Shown: piece by piece, positions 24,802 to 37,910 of the stretch
Layout: every line of letters starts with the position of its first letter
How positions within the stretch are numbered: the first letter of the stretch is position 1
Source: an uncultured Mycoplasmatota bacterium
GTDB lineage: Bacteria > Bacillota_I > Bacilli_A > RF39 > UBA660
Assembly: GCA_946486465.1 (NCBI GenBank)
Contig: CAMLTY010000006.1
Coordinates: forward strand, 1-40,255
DNA length: 40,255 nt
Direction: 5' to 3'
Notes under the pieces: generated by a model
Seen by the model: only the letters and a program-made list of their open reading frames with translations
Told to the model about the DNA's origin: nothing
The model's database searches: none
Translations under genes and position numbers: made by a program

Positions 24802-26589
24802 CTAATATAGACTTTCTAACATAGAAATTAATTTATCAAAATAGAAAATAGCATTTTTATAAATATTTTCATTCTCTAAAGATATCCCTAACTTTTTAAA
24901 AGCATCAAGAGGATAAATATCAGAGCCAATACATAAGAATTTTAAGTATTTGTCTAAAGTTTCTTTATCACCATCTGTAATTTTAGAAGCAAAGTATGAA
25001 GCCACACTTACACAAATGGCATAATTATAAAGGTAAAAATTACTATAATAATGACTTCTAAATATCCAACTTCCTTTAGCATAAGGACTTAATTTAACAG
25101 TATCACCATAATAATATTTTAAAGACTCTTCTGATATTTCATTCATAAACTTTTTTGTTAAGGCTCCACCATCATGAACTTTATCATGCATTAATCTTTC
25201 CATATCTCCTTCTCTAACTGCACCAAATAAATTACTAGCGATTACATTTAGAGAGTTTTCAAGGGCAAGAACTTTTTCTTCCTTATCTTTAGCATTATTA
25301 AAGATATAATTTGATAGTAAGAATTCATTAGTTAAAGATGCAACTTCTCCCATTATTATTGCATTATGACAATATTGTAGGGGGTTATTCTCTCTAATGA
25401 ACTGATAATTGATATGATGTCCTACTTCATGAGCGATAGTAGATAAAGACTCTAAATCATAATGATAACTCATAAGAATACGGGAGTCACACGAAGGAAT
25501 ACTTAAGTTATAACCACCACTACATTTACCAGGATAACCACAAAAATCAATATTACGTTTTTTAATAAGCTTATCATATTTATTAAGATATTCTTCTCCT
25601 AATGGTTTTAGCACTGCTCTTACGGTTTTAATACCTTCCTTAATACTATATTCTTTTTTAGAGTGACTTAGTTTAGCACCTAAATCATAATTATATAAAG
25701 TATCAAGATTAAGTATTTTCTTTCTTAATTTAAAGTATCTTTGTAATGTATTTACACTACTTCTTGTTGTTTTAGATAAAACATCAAAGATATTTTTATT
25801 AAGATTATCTTCAAAAAGACGTGCTTCAAAACTATCATTAAAGTGATATATATTTGCAAGAGTATCTTCTAACTTAACATAACTATTTAATAGTTCTGCA
25901 GAAGTACTCCCATACTCTAAACCTTTCTTTAATAGTTTGGTATCTGCTTCTTTTCTAGTTTCTCTATTATCATTTGACTTTAAGAATCTAGAATTAGTTG
26001 TAGATAGAGTTACTTTCTTACCATCTGCAAGAGTTACTTTACCATAATCATGTTCCATATTAAGTAAAGTAGATGACATATCAGAAAAGTTATTAGTAGC
26101 CATTACTAAGGAATTAACTATTTTCTCTTCACTTTCATTTAAAGTATGTTCTTTATTTCTATAGATATCTAATAGAAGTGCTCTATACTCTTCTAACTTA
26201 CTATTTTCCCTAAATAAGTTTTCAAATTCATCTTTAGATAGTTTTAAAAGTTCTGGTTCAAAGAAACTATTGACATTATTAATTTTTGCAACAGCATCTT
26301 TACTTTTAGAAAGCATCTCAAGATTTTCTTTTTTACCTAACTCTTCATCATTCTTTAACCAAGCATAAGCATCCATCTTCTCAATAATGGTTTCAACTTC
26401 TTTTAGCTTAATTAAATATTCATAAAGTTTATTACCATCTTTAGTACAACCTCTATAATCATTAAAGATATCTATTTTACTATCTACTTCTTCACTTGCT
26501 TTAAAAAATGCTTCATTACTTTCAAAAAACTCACTTAAATCCCATTTGTACTCTTCTTCTACTTCATCCCTATTCTTATATTCTTTCAT
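24802..26589 (-). CDS. pepF: Oligoendopeptidase F (M3 family)
   Basis: Zinc metallopeptidase of the M3/PepF family that degrades short peptides in the cytosol. The 595-residue protein shows the N-terminal W-D-L-S-E-F helix, a long helical body, and the zinc site LSTIAHEVGHHINYQF (His-Glu-x-x-His, about 385-400), with the third ligand in IIMGEVASLTNEFLL. The conserved SYHYDLESLSTIAHE and PYAKGSWIFRSHYYSNFYLYNYA stretches support PepF. It lies 16 nt before dnaJ and after a weak terminator that follows dnaK, so it interrupts the usual dnaK-dnaJ pairing and probably shares the dnaJ transcript. Confidence 0.93.
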   Translation of the reverse strand: MKEYKNRDEVEEEYKWDLSEFFESNEAFFKASEEVDSKIDIFNDYRGCTKDGNKLYEYLIKLKEVETIIEKMDAYAWLKNDEELGKKENLEMLSKSKDAVAKINNVNSFFEPELLKLSKDEFENLFRENSKLEEYRALLLDIYRNKEHTLNESEEKIVNSLVMATNNFSDMSSTLLNMEHDYGKVTLADGKKVTLSTTNSRFLKSNDNRETRKEADTKLLKKGLEYGSTSAELLNSYVKLEDTLANIYHFNDSFEARLFEDNLNKNIFDVLSKTTRSSVNTLQRYFKLRKKILNLDTLYNYDLGAKLSHSKKEYSIKEGIKTVRAVLKPLGEEYLNKYDKLIKKRNIDFCGYPGKCSGGYNLSIPSCDSRILMSYHYDLESLSTIAHEVGHHINYQFIRENNPLQYCHNAIIMGEVASLTNEFLLSNYIFNNAKDKEEKVLALENSLNVIASNLFGAVREGDMERLMHDKVHDGGALTKKFMNEISEESLKYYYGDTVKLSPYAKGSWIFRSHYYSNFYLYNYAICVSVASYFASKITDGDKETLDKYLKFLCIGSDIYPLDAFKKLGISLENENIYKNAIFYFDKLISMLESLY

Positions 26590-29113: not shown

Positions 29114-30109
29114 CTAGTCACTACCTTTCTCAATATTTTCTTTTAAGTACTCTAGAATACTAACAACTCTATCATATTCCATTCTCTTAGGTCCTATGAT
29201 AGCAAGTGTTCCATCTTCACTATCAGTCTTAAAGTTAGTCTTAATAATAGTAACATCATCATCAAGTTTGTTCTCACTACCGATATATACTTCAATATTA
29301 TTAGAGTCATCTTTCTTAATTTCCTGCAACAAGTCTTTATCATCAAGTTTCTTAAATAAGTCTTTAATCTTATCAACATTATCAAACTCAGGTTGTTCCA
29401 AGAACTTAGTTCTGCCAACTACATTAATATCAGTATTAGTAATATCTGTAAAGACATTATAAATAGCATTATATAGTTGCTGATGCTGATCTACATATTT
29501 AGAGATAATAGGCTTAATCTCAAACTCTAGTTTAGTACTTACTTCATCAATTGGTGTGCCTACTATTAAGTTATTAATTAACTCTACAGTCTTTTTAATA
29601 TCTTCCATACTAACATTATCTAAAGTTATATTTTTATACTCTACTTTACCTTTATCAGTAACAACTATAACTATTAGATGATTAGCATCAAGGGGTACAA
29701 CTCTAATTTCTTTAAGTAAGTTCTCATGACTTGCTTTACCTAAGACTACGGCTGTATAAGAAGTCATATCAGAGACAACTTGTAAGCTTTTATTAATACA
29801 ATCACTTAATTCTAATGATTGATTATGGAAAATAATTTGCAATTTTAACATATCTTCTCCATTCATCTTTCTAGCTTCCATTAAGTTATCTACATAATAA
29901 CGATATCCTTCTTCGCTAGGTACTCTACCACTAGAAGTATGAGTTTTCTCTAAGTAACCCAAGTCTTCAAGGCTAGCCATTTCACTTCTAACCGTAGCAC
30001 TGGAACATTTTAATTTCTTACAGAGTTGATTACTACTAACAGGCTTAGCTTGTCTAATATAAGACTCAACAATTAATTTTAATATTTTCTTTTGTCTATC
30101 ACTAAGCAT
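29114..30109 (-). CDS. hrcA: Heat-inducible transcription repressor HrcA
   Basis: HrcA binds CIRCE operators and represses the groE/dnaK operons; it needs GroEL to be active. The winged-helix domain (1-80) has LSDRQKKILKLIVESYI, KPVSSNQLCKK, CSSATVRSEMASLEDLGYLEKTHTSSGRVPSEEGYRYYVD in pieces. The GAF-like domain follows with ASHENLLKEIRVVPLD, and the C-terminal dimer part ends GPKRMEYDRVVSILEYL. Length, 331, is normal. It heads the heat-shock operon, just after a CIRCE-like operator. Confidence 0.97.
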   Translation of the reverse strand: MLSDRQKKILKLIVESYIRQAKPVSSNQLCKKLKCSSATVRSEMASLEDLGYLEKTHTSSGRVPSEEGYRYYVDNLMEARKMNGEDMLKLQIIFHNQSLELSDCINKSLQVVSDMTSYTAVVLGKASHENLLKEIRVVPLDANHLIVIVVTDKGKVEYKNITLDNVSMEDIKKTVELINNLIVGTPIDEVSTKLEFEIKPIISKYVDQHQQLYNAIYNVFTDITNTDINVVGRTKFLEQPEFDNVDKIKDLFKKLDDKDLLQEIKKDDSNNIEVYIGSENKLDDDVTIIKTNFKTDSEDGTLAIIGPKRMEYDRVVSILEYLKENIEKGSD

Positions 30110-30181: not shown

Positions 30182-30223
30182 ATTATATGAAAAAAGTTAG
30201 CACTTGTCAACTCTTTTTGCTAA
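30182..30223 (-). promoter_or_regulatory. Consensus promoter with degenerate CIRCE operator (HrcA site)
   Basis: On the minus strand TTGACA (30205-30210), a 17-nt spacer and TATAAT (30182-30187) form a perfect sigma-A promoter. Overlapping it, TTAGCACTT (30197-30205), 9 nt, TTTTGCTAA (30215-30223) matches the CIRCE layout TTAGCACTC-N9-GAGTGCTAA, with one change in the left half and three in the right. Very likely the HrcA autoregulatory site. Confidence 0.85.
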
Positions 30224-30230
30224 CTTTTTT
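30190..30230 (-). terminator. Terminator of the ricin-lectin gene, overlapping CIRCE and the hrcA promoter
   Basis: AAAAAAGTTAGC (30190-30201) pairs perfectly with GCTAACTTTTTT (30219-30230), loop 17 nt. On the minus strand the stem is followed by the T-run of its own arm. It contains both CIRCE half-sites and the -35 box of hrcA. Confidence 0.6.
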
Positions 30231-30916
30231 TAAACTTTCAATACTTCCCACTTCTGGGCAATAGTTTTATTACAATCATATGAATTAATCGCACTGCCTC
30301 CGGAAGCAAGAGCGCTAAAAAGATCCATACAAGTACCTAATGCAGACCTAATAGTATACACGCCCACTTTATCAGTTTCAACAAATTGCCACTTCTGAGC
30401 TGGAACATCATATGTTGTATATAACTGTATTTTCGTATTAAGTTCTGTAGAACCACCTGCAATATCCATAACAAAACCAGGATTAGAAAAAGTTGCTATA
30501 TAATAATATGTATCAGTAGTTGATGGCCTAATAGTAAAGCTTTGGGAATCACTATTATTGTTTAATAATAAGATCATTGGTGTTGCATGAGTAATATTAT
30601 TATCTTTAATACTTATTAAATAATTTTCATTAATTGGCGTTATTAACTTAATTTTATCTCCAACGGCCACGTTATGATTATTAATATCTTTTAAAACACC
30701 ACTATAAGTTCCGTCTTCCTTTACTGTGATAATATTAGACGTATCATTAATATTGGTAAAACCATTCAATTCATTTTTGATATTTTCAACGAATTCATCT
30801 GTTGTCCTTCTTTCAAAGCTTAAATTTCCTATTAATAAAAACAAAATTAAAGTCGCCATTAATAATAGTCCATATAATATAGTTGTAATTGCAAACCCCT
30901 TATTATTTAAGCACAT
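30230..30916 (-). CDS. Pilin-like signal plus ricin-type beta-trefoil lectin protein
   Basis: The N-terminus NNKGFAITTILYGLLLMATL resembles a type IV pilin-like signal: K-G followed by Phe (residues 6-8) and a 23-residue hydrophobic helix, but with Thr rather than the usual Glu at position +5. After a linker domain, residues about 115-228 form a ricin B-type region with two Q-K-W motifs (174-176 and 221-223) and the FVMDIAGGST and CMDLFSALAS strands typical of carbohydrate-binding beta-trefoil repeats. It is therefore a membrane-anchored or assembled surface protein that may bind glycans. It lies 4 nt after its partner gene; its terminator overlaps the hrcA control region. Confidence 0.75.
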   Translation of the reverse strand: MCLNNKGFAITTILYGLLLMATLILFLLIGNLSFERRTTDEFVENIKNELNGFTNINDTSNIITVKEDGTYSGVLKDINNHNVAVGDKIKLITPINENYLISIKDNNITHATPMILLLNNNSDSQSFTIRPSTTDTYYYIATFSNPGFVMDIAGGSTELNTKIQLYTTYDVPAQKWQFVETDKVGVYTIRSALGTCMDLFSALASGGSAINSYDCNKTIAQKWEVLKV

Positions 30917-30920
30917 TATA

Positions 30921-31478
30921 TTACCCCTCTTCTATTACTTTTATAATAGCATGATAATGACTATCTCTATCTATTACAAAATCACTATTAATAGCCCAAA
31001 GTCTAATAGAATAATCTTCTTCACTATCAGCTTCCAACGTATACTCATATAAAACATTATTTTGATACTCACTAAGTATTTTAGCGACAGGAGCTTGATG
31101 TTCCACTCTTAGGCTAAGTTTTAATAATTCAGATGGAATTGTATTATTAAAACAACCATCACTATTTATTCTATTAGTATTAGGCTCTAATACTATTTTA
31201 TAATTAACACTATTAGCTGTACTATTCTTAACTGTAAAACTATATTCCGTAGAGCTAAGTCCCACAGCATCACTTACTGGCGTAAACTTAGTTAAATTAA
31301 TTTTATTGCCTTCTTTACCATGAAATACTACTTCCATTTCTCCTGTATCTATATCACGTTCCCTTTCATTAGAAAAACTGTTATATATTAAATATGTAGA
31401 GATTATAGCGAAAGCGAATAAAAAGATTATAATTATTGCACTTTTAATCATATGTCTACGATAATATTTTTGATACAT
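30921..31478 (-). CDS. Membrane-anchored extracellular beta-domain protein, partner of the lectin gene
   Basis: After a basic N-terminus (MYQKYYRRHMIKS) there is one hydrophobic helix (about 14-32, AIIIIFLFAFAIISTYLIY) and an outside domain of about 150 residues rich in beta strands (TEYSFTVKNSTANSVNYKIV, YEYTLEADSEEDYSIRLW). This order vaguely resembles TasA/camelysin-type secreted proteins, but there is no clear signal-peptidase site, so the family is uncertain. The ATG at 31476-31478 is chosen because AAAGAGG lies 8 nt before it; the GTG three codons upstream overlaps the site. Probably forms a surface complex with the lectin protein encoded next. Confidence 0.6.
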   Translation of the reverse strand: MYQKYYRRHMIKSAIIIIFLFAFAIISTYLIYNSFSNERERDIDTGEMEVVFHGKEGNKINLTKFTPVSDAVGLSSTEYSFTVKNSTANSVNYKIVLEPNTNRINSDGCFNNTIPSELLKLSLRVEHQAPVAKILSEYQNNVLYEYTLEADSEEDYSIRLWAINSDFVIDRDSHYHAIIKVIEEG

Positions 31479-31499
31479 AGAAAACACCTCTTTTTAATT

Positions 31500-31529
31500 A
31501 TTGTAAAGCTTTTATATAAAATTAGTCAA
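31500..31529 (-). promoter_or_regulatory. Promoter for the surface-protein pair
   Basis: On the minus strand TTGACT (31524-31529), 18-nt spacer, TACAAT (31500-31505). Confidence 0.65.
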
Positions 31530-31621: not shown

Positions 31622-31698
31622 GTCCGCGTAGCTCAGCTGGATAGAGCAATCGCCTTCTAAGCGATCGGTCATGCGTTCGAGTCGCATCGTGGACACCA
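31622..31698 (+). tRNA. tRNA-Arg (anticodon TCT)
   Basis: A full cloverleaf is visible: acceptor GTCCGCG/CGTGGAC, D arm with GCTC...GAGC, anticodon stem ATCGC/GCGAT with loop CTTCTAA, and T arm GCATG?-type stem closing around GTTCGAGTC. The anticodon TCT (31656-31658) reads AGA, the main arginine codon in such AT-rich genomes. The 3' CCA is encoded (31696-31698). Confidence 0.96.
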
Positions 31699-31751: not shown

Positions 31752-32579
31752 ATGAAAGCACTAAATATAGATATATGCAATTTAAAAATATTAGAAATAA
31801 CTGATAACAAAGAAATATATGATTTAGAAAATGGTTATATTTTAAAAAGATATATAAATACAAGTGAAAAAATACTAGAAATTTATAGAAAAAAATTAAT
31901 ACTAGCTAAAGATATATGTATTAAGAATTTAATTAGTCCAGAATTTCTATATGAAGAAAATGGTAAAATAAATGGATCTATTGAAAAGAAAATTAATGGT
32001 CTATCAATCGCTAACTATTTAAGAGCAAAAAGAAAAAATGACGGGCAAATATCTCTTCAAGATATTGGAGAATTATACATGAAGAAACATGATATATTAA
32101 TAGAAGCTAATAAAGAAGATATTAACTTTCCAGATGGTTCTTATAATAACTTTTTTATAGATAAAGATAAAAATGTTTATGCAATAGACTATGATGGTAT
32201 GCAAATTAAAGGGATAACTTCAAGAGAATTTAATGACTTCATCTTTAATAGTAATAATCGTTTCCTATTTAGAAATGAAAAGTACATTAATGAAGGATTA
32301 ATAAATTGTAATATGGATATCTATATGATGGGAATAGAGTTTCTATTTCTTACAACTAAATTAGATCCAATTAGTTATAAATTAAAAAATATAGATGAGT
32401 TTAGAAGTTTCTTAGACTATGTAAATTTTCCAGATAGTGATTTAAGAAAAAAATTAGAGTTACTATATAACCCTAACGAAAATAATAGATATTTTAAAGC
32501 TGAATTAGAAGATTTTATCAAAGAATATAGTTTAACAACAGATAGAAAAGGAGTACCAAGAGTGTTTATAAAGAAATAA
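31752..32579 (+). CDS. Protein-kinase-like (APH/HipA-type fold) protein of unknown target
   Basis: The 275-residue protein has kinase-fold marks: YILKRYINT (candidate Lys of the N-lobe, about 32), IEKKINGLSIANYL as hinge-like segment, the catalytic-loop-like FPDGSYNNFFIDKD (Asp128, Asn132/133), and IDYDGMQIKG (146-150), which takes the place of the D-F-G magnesium site. The HRD/HxD residue order is altered, so activity is uncertain. The family may be an aminoglycoside/choline-kinase-like or HipA-like branch. GGGGG precedes the ATG. It lies just after tRNA-Arg and meets nnrD head-on with no spacer. Confidence 0.6.
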   Translation: MKALNIDICNLKILEITDNKEIYDLENGYILKRYINTSEKILEIYRKKLILAKDICIKNLISPEFLYEENGKINGSIEKKINGLSIANYLRAKRKNDGQISLQDIGELYMKKHDILIEANKEDINFPDGSYNNFFIDKDKNVYAIDYDGMQIKGITSREFNDFIFNSNNRFLFRNEKYINEGLINCNMDIYMMGIEFLFLTTKLDPISYKLKNIDEFRSFLDYVNFPDSDLRKKLELLYNPNENNRYFKAELEDFIKEYSLTTDRKGVPRVFIKK

Positions 32580-36232: not shown

Positions 36233-36263
36233 AAAAATCAGCCAATTTATTTATTATTGGCTG
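36233..36263 (-). terminator. Terminator of the IS66-type transposase gene
   Basis: CAGCCAAT (36239-36246) pairs with ATTGGCTG (36256-36263); on the minus strand ATTTTTCC follows. The transposase stop codon is in the loop. Confidence 0.75.
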
Positions 36264-37830
36264 TTTTTAAATTTCTAAGTTCATCAACGGTATATGGGTT
36301 GTTATCAAATAATCTCTTTATCGCTTCATATTTATTAACATCATAACTACCACAAGTTTCTGTATATGTCATAATGTTTGCAAAACACTTAGCAGATTCT
36401 AGATTTTGAAATTGATAACTTATCTTCATCTTGGTCTTCAACATTCTAAGTAATCTCTCACATAGATTATTTGAATATGGTAAAGAGAAATCTCTAACCC
36501 ACTCAGTTATTGGTCCTTTGAAGTCTCTCATAAACTCTAATAGATTCTCTTCTTTAGTAAATTCATATTTATGTTTAAACTCTATATATTCTTTAAAACC
36601 ATCTTTAATAATAGAGTCATACTTACTATCAAAGTCTTTAATTTCCTCTTTACTAAAAGATTTAATTTGTTTTTCACTATATTCTTTTCTTTTAGTTAAA
36701 GTACTTTCCAATAACTCTTTCATTTTATCTGCCCAATCATGTTTAGTATTTTCTGCTATGCTTTGTAATTTCCTTGTTATATGTGCATTACATTCTATGT
36801 TTTTATAACTATAATCTTCACAATAGTTATGTAATAAATGATCATGCATAACAGTACAATCACTAGGCAAGTTCTGTAATATACCATCTTCATCCATACC
36901 TTTAGTATTTTTTGCAAGATGAGCTTTATACAAAACTTCTTTTCCATTAGTATAACCTCTAATACATCCTTTATCTTTTTCTCCTATTTTTGCAACTGTA
37001 TCATCCCAGTAATTTAATTCAGATTCTAATATCTTTTGTTTTACATCAAAAGTAAAATCTTTAAGCATACTAGAGGCTTTCTTTTGCAGTTTTACTAAAT
37101 AACCTTCGCTAGGATCTATTTCTCCATTTGTAAATCCACATATTATTTTTCTTACTCTATTATAAGATATAAAACCATAATCAAGTAAATTTATGGCAAG
37201 AGCTTTAACTTCACTACCATATTGATTTTCTGCATGTAAATTATCTGGGATTTCACTTTTAAATTTACTACCGCAATCTTCACACACATACTCATTAAAG
37301 TAGTGTCTTCTTTTTATTATAGTAATTTTAAAATCTAATTCATCTCTTACTTTAACATTTATTACTTTAATATTTTTACTATTACAATTAGGGCATTTAT
37401 CCATAGTATGATTTACTTCTTCTGTTATTTCATTATCATTAAATTTTTCTAATTTATGTTTTTTATGACCAATCTGTCCTCCCTTACTTTTATCGGTTTC
37501 TTTTCTTGAATTACATATTTTAGTTTTATATATAGGATCTTTACTGCTAGGTAAACTTGAATTATTTGAGTTAATGTTAAGCCTTTGTTCTAGTTCAAAA
37601 ATTCTTTGATCTTTTTCTTTTATTATTTTTTCATATTTTTCAGATACTTCTTTAACTACTTTAGTCAAAGCGGTTTCTAACTTCTTATCAAAATTTTCTT
37701 CTAAATATTTCAACTTAGAAGTTAGTGATTTTTTCTCTTCTATTAATTCAGAGTTTTTATCTTGTAATTCTACTAACTTCGTTTCTAATTCATTAACTCT
37801 AGTTTGTAATTTACCTAATGTATTTCCCAT
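36247..37830 (-). CDS. IS66-family transposase
   Basis: DDE transposase of 527 residues. It begins with a coiled coil (about 1-95, NELETKLVELQDKNSELIEE) and then has NINSNNSSLPSSKDP, the IS66 N-S-S-x-P-S-S motif. Next come a zinc ribbon (CPNCNSKN and CEDCGSKF), a catalytic region with LNYWDDTVAKI and VMHDHLLHNYC, and the C-terminal NNLCERLLRMLKTKMKISYQ with the last acidic residue. The ATG at 37828-37830 is preferred (AAAAGGAG at 8 nt) over a GTG eight codons upstream that overlaps that site. No frameshift or stop interrupts it. Confidence 0.93.
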   Translation of the reverse strand: MGNTLGKLQTRVNELETKLVELQDKNSELIEEKKSLTSKLKYLEENFDKKLETALTKVVKEVSEKYEKIIKEKDQRIFELEQRLNINSNNSSLPSSKDPIYKTKICNSRKETDKSKGGQIGHKKHKLEKFNDNEITEEVNHTMDKCPNCNSKNIKVINVKVRDELDFKITIIKRRHYFNEYVCEDCGSKFKSEIPDNLHAENQYGSEVKALAINLLDYGFISYNRVRKIICGFTNGEIDPSEGYLVKLQKKASSMLKDFTFDVKQKILESELNYWDDTVAKIGEKDKGCIRGYTNGKEVLYKAHLAKNTKGMDEDGILQNLPSDCTVMHDHLLHNYCEDYSYKNIECNAHITRKLQSIAENTKHDWADKMKELLESTLTKRKEYSEKQIKSFSKEEIKDFDSKYDSIIKDGFKEYIEFKHKYEFTKEENLLEFMRDFKGPITEWVRDFSLPYSNNLCERLLRMLKTKMKISYQFQNLESAKCFANIMTYTETCGSYDVNKYEAIKRLFDNNPYTVDELRNLKTANNK

Positions 37831-37910
37831 CTTTAAAACTCCTTTTATTTTCACTATTATCTTATCATATAATTATGGGATTTTATCAGAATAATTGTGT
37901 AAAAAAGTAA

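What the first reader, a model, noticed from the sequence alone, without database searches (positions are those of the whole stretch)
30230..31529. Pilin-like signal fused to a ricin-type lectin, with a membrane-anchored partner
The K-G-F plus hydrophobic helix is like a pilin signal but lacks Glu at +5, and the C-terminal part has two Q-x-W lectin motifs. The preceding gene encodes a single-pass protein with an extracellular beta domain. Together they may form a small glycan-binding surface structure not tied to a known pilus locus in this window.
Basis: partly seen in the sequence, partly recalled or inferred. Interest (0 to 1): 0.55.

Follow-up and report, generated by a model that had tools for sequence, protein, structure and literature searches.

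The report
Pilin-like anchor with swappable lectin head
A gut bacterium and its relatives keep, at a usually fixed chromosomal spot, a tiny pilin-like membrane helix whose outer part is a sugar-binding-type lectin in some species, a different surface domain in others, and absent in many, which suggests an exchangeable surface 'tool holder'.

Summary
Gene P (30230-30916, -) has a prepilin-like start (LNNKG|FAITTILY, Thr not Glu at +5) and a ricin-type lectin end. Gene Q (30921-31487, -) is a single-pass protein with a beta-rich outer domain. The genome (near 'Candidatus Onthousia') has a prepilin peptidase, PilB- and PilC-type proteins and canonical prepilins elsewhere.

The rest varies: ricin lectin, glycine-rich, DUF6273, ChW or LamG/FGE-like domains, or nothing (55-64-aa proteins). 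In the genus P lies beside Q (29 of 29 loci) and usually before hrcA (25 of 29). DNA comparisons suggest that the whole gene, sometimes with Q, is exchanged between species. Pfam and NCBIfam prepilin models miss P, but a profile comparison aligns it in register with the genome's own prepilins (E 1.4e-6; controls 0.023 and 0.0087).

Best reading: a Glu5-less modular minor pilin, cut by the housekeeping prepilin peptidase, displaying an exchangeable adhesive head, perhaps at a pilus tip. Cleavage, assembly and glycan binding are inferred. New variant of a known kind (modular pilins).

The parts
30230..30916 (-). P: pilin-like N-terminus fused to a ricin-type lectin (228 aa, stop included)
   Evidence: ORF; PF14200 E 2.2e-14; single match in its own genome
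30752..30916 (-). P residues 1-55: conserved prepilin-like leader, hydrophobic helix and amphipathic extension
   Evidence: alignment A1 of 31 sequences, G7 F8 A9 Y15 L50 invariant; dN/dS 0.13; hhalign to own prepilins E 1.4e-6; helix 5-54
30881..30883 (-). codon of residue +5 after the putative cleavage site: Thr where canonical prepilins have Glu
   Evidence: sequence; in alignment A1, picked by similarity and not by this position, 29 of 31 have Thr and 2 Ser
30233..30751 (-). P residues 56-228: variable part, here a ricin-type beta-trefoil lectin
   Evidence: PF14200 / PF00652; in 8 of 9 relatives compared, DNA homology stops at codon 43-55 and resumes within a few bases of the stop codon (the ninth, L051, shares the lectin)
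30921..31487 (-). Q: membrane-anchored partner, N-terminal helix and beta-rich domain
   Evidence: ORF; model; beside P in 29 of 29 loci of the genus; paralogs found by profile and hhalign E 2.1e-13
30197..30223 (-). CIRCE-like inverted repeat with an overlapping TTGACA-N17-TATAAT promoter before hrcA; downstream border of the variable part
   Evidence: pattern matched in 31 of 40 P-hrcA intervals, name CIRCE recalled; homology resumes here
29114..30109 (-). hrcA, downstream neighbour (hrcA-grpE-dnaK)
   Evidence: tblastn synteny; a relative's HrcA confirmed by Pfam
31622..31698 (+). tRNA-Arg (tct), upstream border of the Q-P locus
   Evidence: ARAGORN; found in 22 of 30 relatives' loci scanned

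Best explanation
P is a Glu5-less, modular, pilin-like protein. Its N-terminus inserts in the membrane, is cut after Gly7 by the one prepilin peptidase found in the genome, and the resulting alpha-1-like helix is built as a minor subunit into, or docked at, the type 4 pilus encoded elsewhere in the genome, most plausibly as the end (tip) subunit, because it cannot offer Glu5 to a subunit above it. What it displays is an adhesive head. In this species that is a ricin-type lectin that would bind glycans; in relatives it is another head or none. Q, the adjacent membrane-anchored beta-domain protein, would be its membrane partner or chaperone. The P gene, sometimes with Q, is exchanged between species at this spot. 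Shown: sequence features, conservation, synteny, head diversity, identity patterns that point to exchange, presence of the machinery genes. Inferred: cleavage, assembly, tip position, glycan binding, P-Q contact.
For: Leader and K-G-F in register with seven prepilin-type proteins of the same genome: hhalign probability 90.4, E 1.4e-6, against controls with Q's anchor of 2.1 (E 0.023) and 4.6 (E 0.0087). The C9 prepilin has the same N-N-K-G-F start. Prepilin peptidase with PF06750 and PF01478, PilB-type ATPase 404 bits, PilC-type protein PF00482 E 2.2e-50, five PF07963 prepilins over the cut-off. Head diversity. N-terminus under purifying selection with and without a head: median dN/dS 0.123 (87 pairs) and 0.133 (24 pairs). 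Head labels need 10 changes on an hrcA tree of 29 rows, 27 labelled. Exchange: window versus L054 P N-terminus 79.6% DNA identity against Q 94.0 and hrcA 97.8; L054 versus L058 99.3 against 91.8 and 95.5. Literature: a tip complex capped by a subunit lacking Glu5 (PMC10191384, passages); S. sanguinis PilA lacks Glu5 and PilC is a lectin-bearing modular pilin (PMC9934059, passages).
Against: No Glu5. PF07963 does not detect P in its own genome at E up to 10 nor any of 31 relatives at E up to 1; TIGR02532 does not detect P and is not among the families matched by the 31. P lies far from the pilus genes. No pilin beta-sheet domain is recognised, and headless forms leave only a helix. Co-occurrence with the peptidase is weak evidence: the peptidase is nearly universal in the order (358 of 385); P's N-terminus is in 178 of those 358 and in 7 of the 27 others (counted by hand; the 7 unlisted peptidase-negative genomes are inferred from gaps in the handles), and incomplete assemblies confuse both. 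In some pairs Q is as diverged as P while hrcA is not (L063-L064: P 81.0, Q 77.9, hrcA 97.3), so the exchanged tract is not P alone. The lectin part of the model is mostly below pLDDT 50.
Confidence: 0.5

Rival explanations
1. P is not a filament subunit. It is a membrane-retained display anchor, perhaps still cut by the prepilin peptidase, that pairs with Q through their transmembrane helices. The heads are optional adhesins standing on the cell surface.
For: Q is beside P in 29 of 29 genus loci. Q's transmembrane part is itself strongly conserved. Headless forms are kept under purifying selection, so the helix has a job without any head. No Glu5, and the locus is away from the pilus genes.
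Against: The in-register match of leader and K-G-F to the genome's prepilins is unexpected for a plain anchor. In 11 loci outside the core of the genus the gene before P is not Q-like, and the Q profile is found in only 1 of the 8 other-genus genomes of the family searched.
Confidence: 0.3
2. P belongs to the second, Tad-like secretion or pilus cluster of the genome rather than to the type 4 pilus.
For: Contig C5 carries a CpaB-like protein (TIGR03177 E 3.1e-9, below its cut-off) and a TadA-like ATPase (TIGR03819 E 3.3e-32, below its cut-off). Only one prepilin peptidase was found.
Against: P's signal resembles the GFT-IEL prepilins. No Flp-type pilin was looked for or identified, and the TadB/C-like reading of the next genes is by eye only, without Pfam or NCBIfam support.
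Confidence: 0.08
3. The N-terminus is an ordinary membrane anchor; K-G-F is chance or a local compositional habit.
For: Curated prepilin models do not detect it.
Against: G and F invariant in 31 aligned sequences; low dN/dS; profile match with controls negative.
Confidence: 0.08

Closest known systems
Modular pilins PilB / PilC of Streptococcus sanguinis (PMC8179133, PMC9934059; passages seen)
   Same: Pilin N-terminus with a grafted adhesive module; PilC's module is a lectin; monoderm host; one partner (PilA) lacks Glu5. PF13385 (Laminin_G_3), one of the frequent modules reported there, occurs in P of L059.
   Different: There the modular pilins have a class III signal recognised by IPR012902, a small pilin module and a place in the pil locus, and PilC has Glu5. 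P has Thr5, no recognised pilin beta domain, lies beside hrcA, and is headless in many relatives. The published survey used IPR012902; by my recall that entry includes PF07963, which misses P.
PilV of I-complex plasmids and its shufflon (TP114, PMC9045228; passages seen)
   Same: Constant N-terminus, alternative C-terminal adhesin ends that set target specificity.
   Different: PilV ends are switched within a cell by site-specific inversion. Here the alternatives are spread over species, the N-terminal DNA moves too, and no long inverted repeats were seen at three loci.
Short (truncated) pilins of Geobacter such as PilA GSU1496 (PMC5174107; passages seen)
   Same: A pilin reduced to little more than the alpha-1 helix, with a separate adjacent beta protein gene.
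   Different: Geobacter's keeps Glu5 and is a major pilin. The headless P forms lack Glu5, and Q is not a split-off pilin domain by any test here.
GspK / PilK-type tip subunits lacking Glu5 (PMC9934059, PMC10191384, PMC8179133; passages seen)
   Same: Lack Glu5; expected only at the filament end.
   Different: They are encoded with the other minor pilins, and GspK has a pilin module with an inserted domain. P's link to a minor-pilin set is not shown.
Camelysin / TasA-type surface proteins (recalled), for Q
   Same: A Q paralog in the genome matches PF12389 weakly (E 0.0095, 16.2 bits, cut-off 22.5); short anchor followed by a beta domain.
   Different: Q itself has no PF12389 match at E up to 1, and all 27 aligned Q sequences have Y-[LFY]-I-Y where the four paralogs inspected have Y/F-A-x-F at the helix end, so Q is probably not released.

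Membership tests
Type 4 pilins (class III signal) | short hydrophilic leader ending in Gly or Ala, then 20-25 mainly hydrophobic residues | tested here: met
   MCLNNKG then a hydrophobic stretch; Gly and Phe invariant in 31 of 31; definition from PMC10191384
Type 4 pilins (class III signal) | Glu at +5 (often, not always, per PMC10191384) | tested here: not met
   Thr in P; Thr in 29 and Ser in 2 of 31 aligned relatives. The larger set of 85 cannot be used for this, because its search motif excluded Glu there.
Type 4 pilins (class III signal) | match to PF07963 or TIGR02532 | tested here: not met
   own genome at E up to 10; 0 of 31 relatives; P itself. In NCBIfam a few of the 31 have weak, sub-threshold matches to ComGE (2), ComGF (1), ComGD (1) and PRK10332 (2).
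Type 4 pilins (class III signal) | similarity of leader and alpha-1 to prepilins of the same genome | tested here: met
   hhalign probability 90.4, E 1.4e-6 over 40 columns; controls 2.1 and 4.6
Type 4 pilins (class III signal) | prepilin peptidase and assembly ATPase in the genome | tested here: met
Type 4 pilins (class III signal) | processing by the peptidase and presence in filaments | not testable with these tools
   needs protein chemistry or imaging
Ricin-type beta-trefoil lectins | sequence match and three Q-x-W-type repeats | tested here: met
   PF14200 E 2.2e-14 over its cut-off; PF00652 E 4.8e-6, 27.2 bits against a cut-off of 29; QKW174, QKW221 and a degenerate QSF125
Ricin-type beta-trefoil lectins | beta-trefoil fold | tested here: inconclusive
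   model of this part is of low confidence
Ricin-type beta-trefoil lectins | sugar binding | not testable with these tools
   needs a glycan array
Camelysin (PF12389), for Q | match to the family model | tested here: not met
   no match of Q at E up to 1; weak match only for a paralog
Shufflon-type switching | inverted repeats flanking alternative ends | tested here: not met
   no inverted pair longer than 24 nt or better than 84% complementary in three loci; a recombinase was not searched for

The most novel reading that the evidence does not exclude
A widespread class of Glu5-less pilins, invisible to the curated models, in reduced-genome gut Bacilli: a core tip subunit, usually sitting before the heat-shock genes, whose adhesive head is exchanged between species together with its carrier, and whose ancestral or default state is a headless alpha-1 helix. 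It would be a chromosomal interchangeable pilus tip, analogous to the plasmid PilV shufflon but working at population level.
Probability: 0.3. Interest if true: 0.72.

Novelty: new variant of a known kind. Interest (0 to 1): 0.52.

Why it matters
If right, surveys of pilins based on the Glu5 motif miss a whole class, and these little-studied gut bacteria, known mostly from metagenome assemblies, carry a natural set of one carrier with many heads, which makes it testable what the head alone changes in adhesion. The headless forms ask what a pilin reduced to its helix does. It also gives a named candidate for host- or mucus-glycan contact in this lineage.

Tried and rejected
Rejected: that only the 3' end of P is swapped. 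DNA homology stops at codon 43-55 and resumes near the stop codon in 8 of 9 relatives, but the N-terminal DNA is itself far more diverged than both flanks between window and L054, so exchange of the whole gene fits better. Rejected: a shufflon, on three loci. Rejected: Q as a recognised camelysin. Uninformative: peptidase co-occurrence.

Led nowhere: a strict N-terminal DNA pattern found only P itself in its genome; a looser pattern with up to two mismatches gave 17 matches against 10 for the pattern read backwards and was not followed. The fold searches for Q gave no call: best Z 6.1, no Foldseek match at E 0.001 or better. The sequence search of solved structures with the Q profile gave nothing significant; its top row, a pilin, has E 0.12, and a Q paralog gave E 0.58 at best. 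The P model is poor outside the helix. An early hhalign of Q with a surface protein of L069 was weak (probability 10) and was replaced. Paper searches: nothing on Onthousia with pili (0 papers); one paper holds RF39 and type IV pili together but credits pili to another lineage, UBA9783; the listings showed no paper on this protein.

Limits of labels: in the tree, only L053, L055, L065, L069, L070, L071 and the window were scanned with Pfam. L071 had no match and is called FGE-like by eye from its likeness to L059, whose own FGE match is below the cut-off; L059 is not in the tree. The other DUF6273, GRD and ricin labels are by eye from shared sequence. Two rows of the tree without a readable P (L052, L067) were left out of the label count. 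Alignment A1 holds 31 of the 39 N-termini; left out were L050 and L066 (near-identical to others) and L084, L086, L087, L088 and both copies in L089 (more distant). The 85-protein set was picked by a motif that fixes G, F and the small residue at +5, so its conservation counts at motif positions are circular and are not used as evidence.

Full report
What is there. On the minus strand lie Q (31487-30921) and, four bases later, P (30916-30230), followed by a CIRCE-like repeat with a TTGACA-N17-TATAAT promoter (30223-30197 and on) and hrcA-grpE-dnaK. A tRNA-Arg (31622-31698, +) lies upstream of Q. P starts MCLNNKG|FAITTILYGLLL and ends in a ricin-type lectin: PF14200 E 2.2e-14, with Q-x-W-type motifs at 125 (degenerate QSF), 174 and 221. 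Residue +5 is Thr. Q is predicted as a helix (2-42) followed by beta strands.

The genome. It is a fragmented 1.40-Mb assembly, 87% complete. The nearest named records are metagenome assemblies of 'Candidatus Onthousia' and uncultured Bacilli or Tenericutes; more distant matches include isolates labelled Lapin and Goat. It has one detected prepilin peptidase, with PF06750 and PF01478, just downstream of a PilC-type protein (PF00482), and a PilB-type ATPase (404 bits). Six places match PF07963, five of them over the cut-off; the sixth is one of two prepilin-like genes lying divergently upstream of the PilB gene. A Tad-like cluster on contig C5 is a second candidate system.

The conserved module. 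Searching P in 100 relatives gave matches in 42, among them 31 of the 35 genomes of the same genus, one of these (G021) by the lectin part only. Of 40 fetched stretches plus the window, 38 contain P's N-terminus by tblastn (L052, L056 and L067 do not; L089 has two copies). Alignment A1 uses 31 of these 39 N-termini; G7, F8, A9, Y15 and L50 are invariant, and +5 is Thr in 29 and Ser in 2. Over 49 codons in 22 loci the median dN/dS is 0.13, nearly equal for headless (0.133, 24 pairs) and headed (0.123, 87 pairs) forms. In the order, A1 matches 185 of 385 genomes at E 1e-4 or better.

Is it a pilin signal? Curated models say no: PF07963 misses P even at E 10 and misses 31 of 31 relatives, and TIGR02532 misses P and is not listed for the 31. 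In NCBIfam a few of the 31 show only weak, sub-threshold matches, some of them to competence minor pilins. A direct profile comparison says yes: A1 against seven prepilin-type proteins of this genome gives probability 90.4, E 1.4e-6, with K-G-F in register. The same prepilins against Q's anchor give 2.1, E 0.023, and A1 against Q's anchor 4.6, E 0.0087. E-values are for single comparisons, and only these two controls were run. I therefore call P pilin-like and probably homologous to prepilins in its signal, but do not file it in the N_methyl family.

The variable part. Among 85 distinct P-like proteins, the window's included, collected from all loci (motif-picked), 27 are 55-64 aa long and 58 are 86 aa or longer (6 of these run off their locus). 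Heads found by Pfam in the ten scanned: Laminin_G_3, ChW (three stretches), DUF6273, ALK/LTK glycine-rich, ricin, and below-cut-off F5/F8 and FGE matches; two (L071, L175) had none. Many headless forms outside the core of the genus end in or near a Cys pair, C-x5 to x7-C. On an hrcA DNA tree of 29 loci, the 27 labelled rows need 10 changes of head type; 500 shuffles gave a mean of 14.4 and a minimum of 11. So heads are partly inherited but change often: seven types would need only six changes if each arose once. Headless versus headed alone needs 7 changes.

How it changes. Window and L054 are close in hrcA (97.8% DNA) and Q (94.0%), yet window has the lectin and L054 none, and their P N-termini share only 79.6% DNA. 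Headless L054 and L058 share 99.3% there against 91.8 (Q) and 95.5 (hrcA), and window and L050 share 100% against 93.3 and 98.6. So the gene, N-terminus included, seems to move between lineages, with selection holding the N-terminal protein constant. Against a P-only exchange: among headed relatives Q is often as diverged as P although hrcA is not (L063-L064: P 81.0, Q 77.9, hrcA 97.3), so the tract may take in Q, or hrcA may have moved. With hrcA at 93-100%, same-head pairs average 84.8% in P's N-terminus (20 pairs) and different-head pairs 79.9% (21 pairs). This is an inference from pairwise identities of a short (147-base) segment.

Position. In the genus, Q is beside P in 29 of 29 loci that hold P's N-terminus. 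hrcA follows in 25 of 29, in a few with other genes between; L059 and L068 end at a contig edge just after or within P, and L079 and L082 show no hrcA in the stretch fetched. In 11 loci whose N-terminus is only 33-50% identical to the window's (L157-L163, L165, L168, L173, L190), taken to be other genera, hrcA lies 101-132 bases downstream of P. In 11 loci outside the core of the genus that I read gene by gene, an RsmD-like gene lies directly before P in 10 (one gene away in L164), a YlbF-like gene before it in 10, and hrcA directly after P in 6. The RsmD-like family was confirmed by Pfam in 3 of 3 scanned (Cons_hypoth95; name RsmD recalled) and YlbF in 1 of 2, the other just below its cut-off; the rest is by eye. 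P is thus old in this order, and Q probably joined the locus in this genus. In genus g5, P and Q lie on different contigs of G038.

Q. The Q profile gives 4 to 19 matches per genome in the genus, Q included, and 6 in this one. One paralog aligns over 151 columns (E 2.1e-13). Four paralogs carry Y/F-A-x-F at the end of the helix, like SipW-type sites (recalled); all 27 aligned Q sequences have Y-[LFY]-I-Y there, so Q has probably become a permanent membrane anchor. Its fold match is undecided.

Mechanism. The best-supported chain is: export, cleavage after Gly7 by the housekeeping peptidase, incorporation of the helix as a Glu5-less minor subunit (a tip position fits what is published for Glu5-less subunits), and display of the head. 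Each step after the sequence evidence is inferred. The main rival is a membrane-held P-Q pair outside any filament. Peptidase co-occurrence cannot separate them, because the peptidase is nearly universal in the order (358 of 385; P's N-terminus in 178 of these and in 7 of the 27 others, counted by hand).

What is known. Modular pilins, including lectin-bearing ones, are described: over 1,200 proteins and 264 architectures found through IPR012902 (PMC8179133, passages; PMC9934059, passages). Alternative pilin ends are known from plasmid shufflons (PMC9045228, passages), and headless pilins from Geobacter (PMC5174107, passages). I found no description of this Glu5-less class or of a chromosomal exchange slot in the searches made, all in one open-access library and seen as listings except for the papers named.

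Noticed in passing
G000:C5:6000-16000 (L214): A Tad-like cluster (CpaB-like, TadA-like ATPase, two TadB/C-like membrane proteins by eye) in a genome that also has type 4 pilus genes.
   Followed up: partly
window 24802-26589 and relatives' dnaK neighbourhoods: The PepF-like gene beside dnaK is 86-100% identical to the window's in eight relatives but only 24-29% in eight others (L085's 22-residue match aside), as if two paralogs alternate in this slot.
   Followed up: no
G020 (many contigs); G002:C58:15667-16188: The Q family is expanded (19 matches in G020), and a long member in G002 carries DUF6273, a head type also found on P.
   Followed up: partly
L069, L073, L166 between P and hrcA: Additional surface-type proteins are inserted between P and hrcA in some relatives, so the slot also takes whole genes.
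   Followed up: no
L054, just after the P stop codon: A partial duplication of the CIRCE-like half-site and promoter stretch before hrcA in a headless relative.
   Followed up: no
L077, L079-L083, L105, L108-L112, L115, L116, L118, L164, L166: Headless P forms of these loci end in or near a Cys pair five to seven residues apart (CVxDGSC-like), a possible mini-loop.
   Followed up: no
window 31752-32579 (+): A 275-aa protein of unknown family beside the tRNA-Arg; no match, or a partial or split one, at the same place in several relatives.
   Followed up: no
window 36247-37854 (-): An IS66-type transposase (PF03050 E 9.3e-17).
   Followed up: no
G048:C42 (L089): Two neighbouring P-like genes with glycine-rich heads in a genome, 90% complete, without a detected prepilin peptidase.
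   Followed up: no
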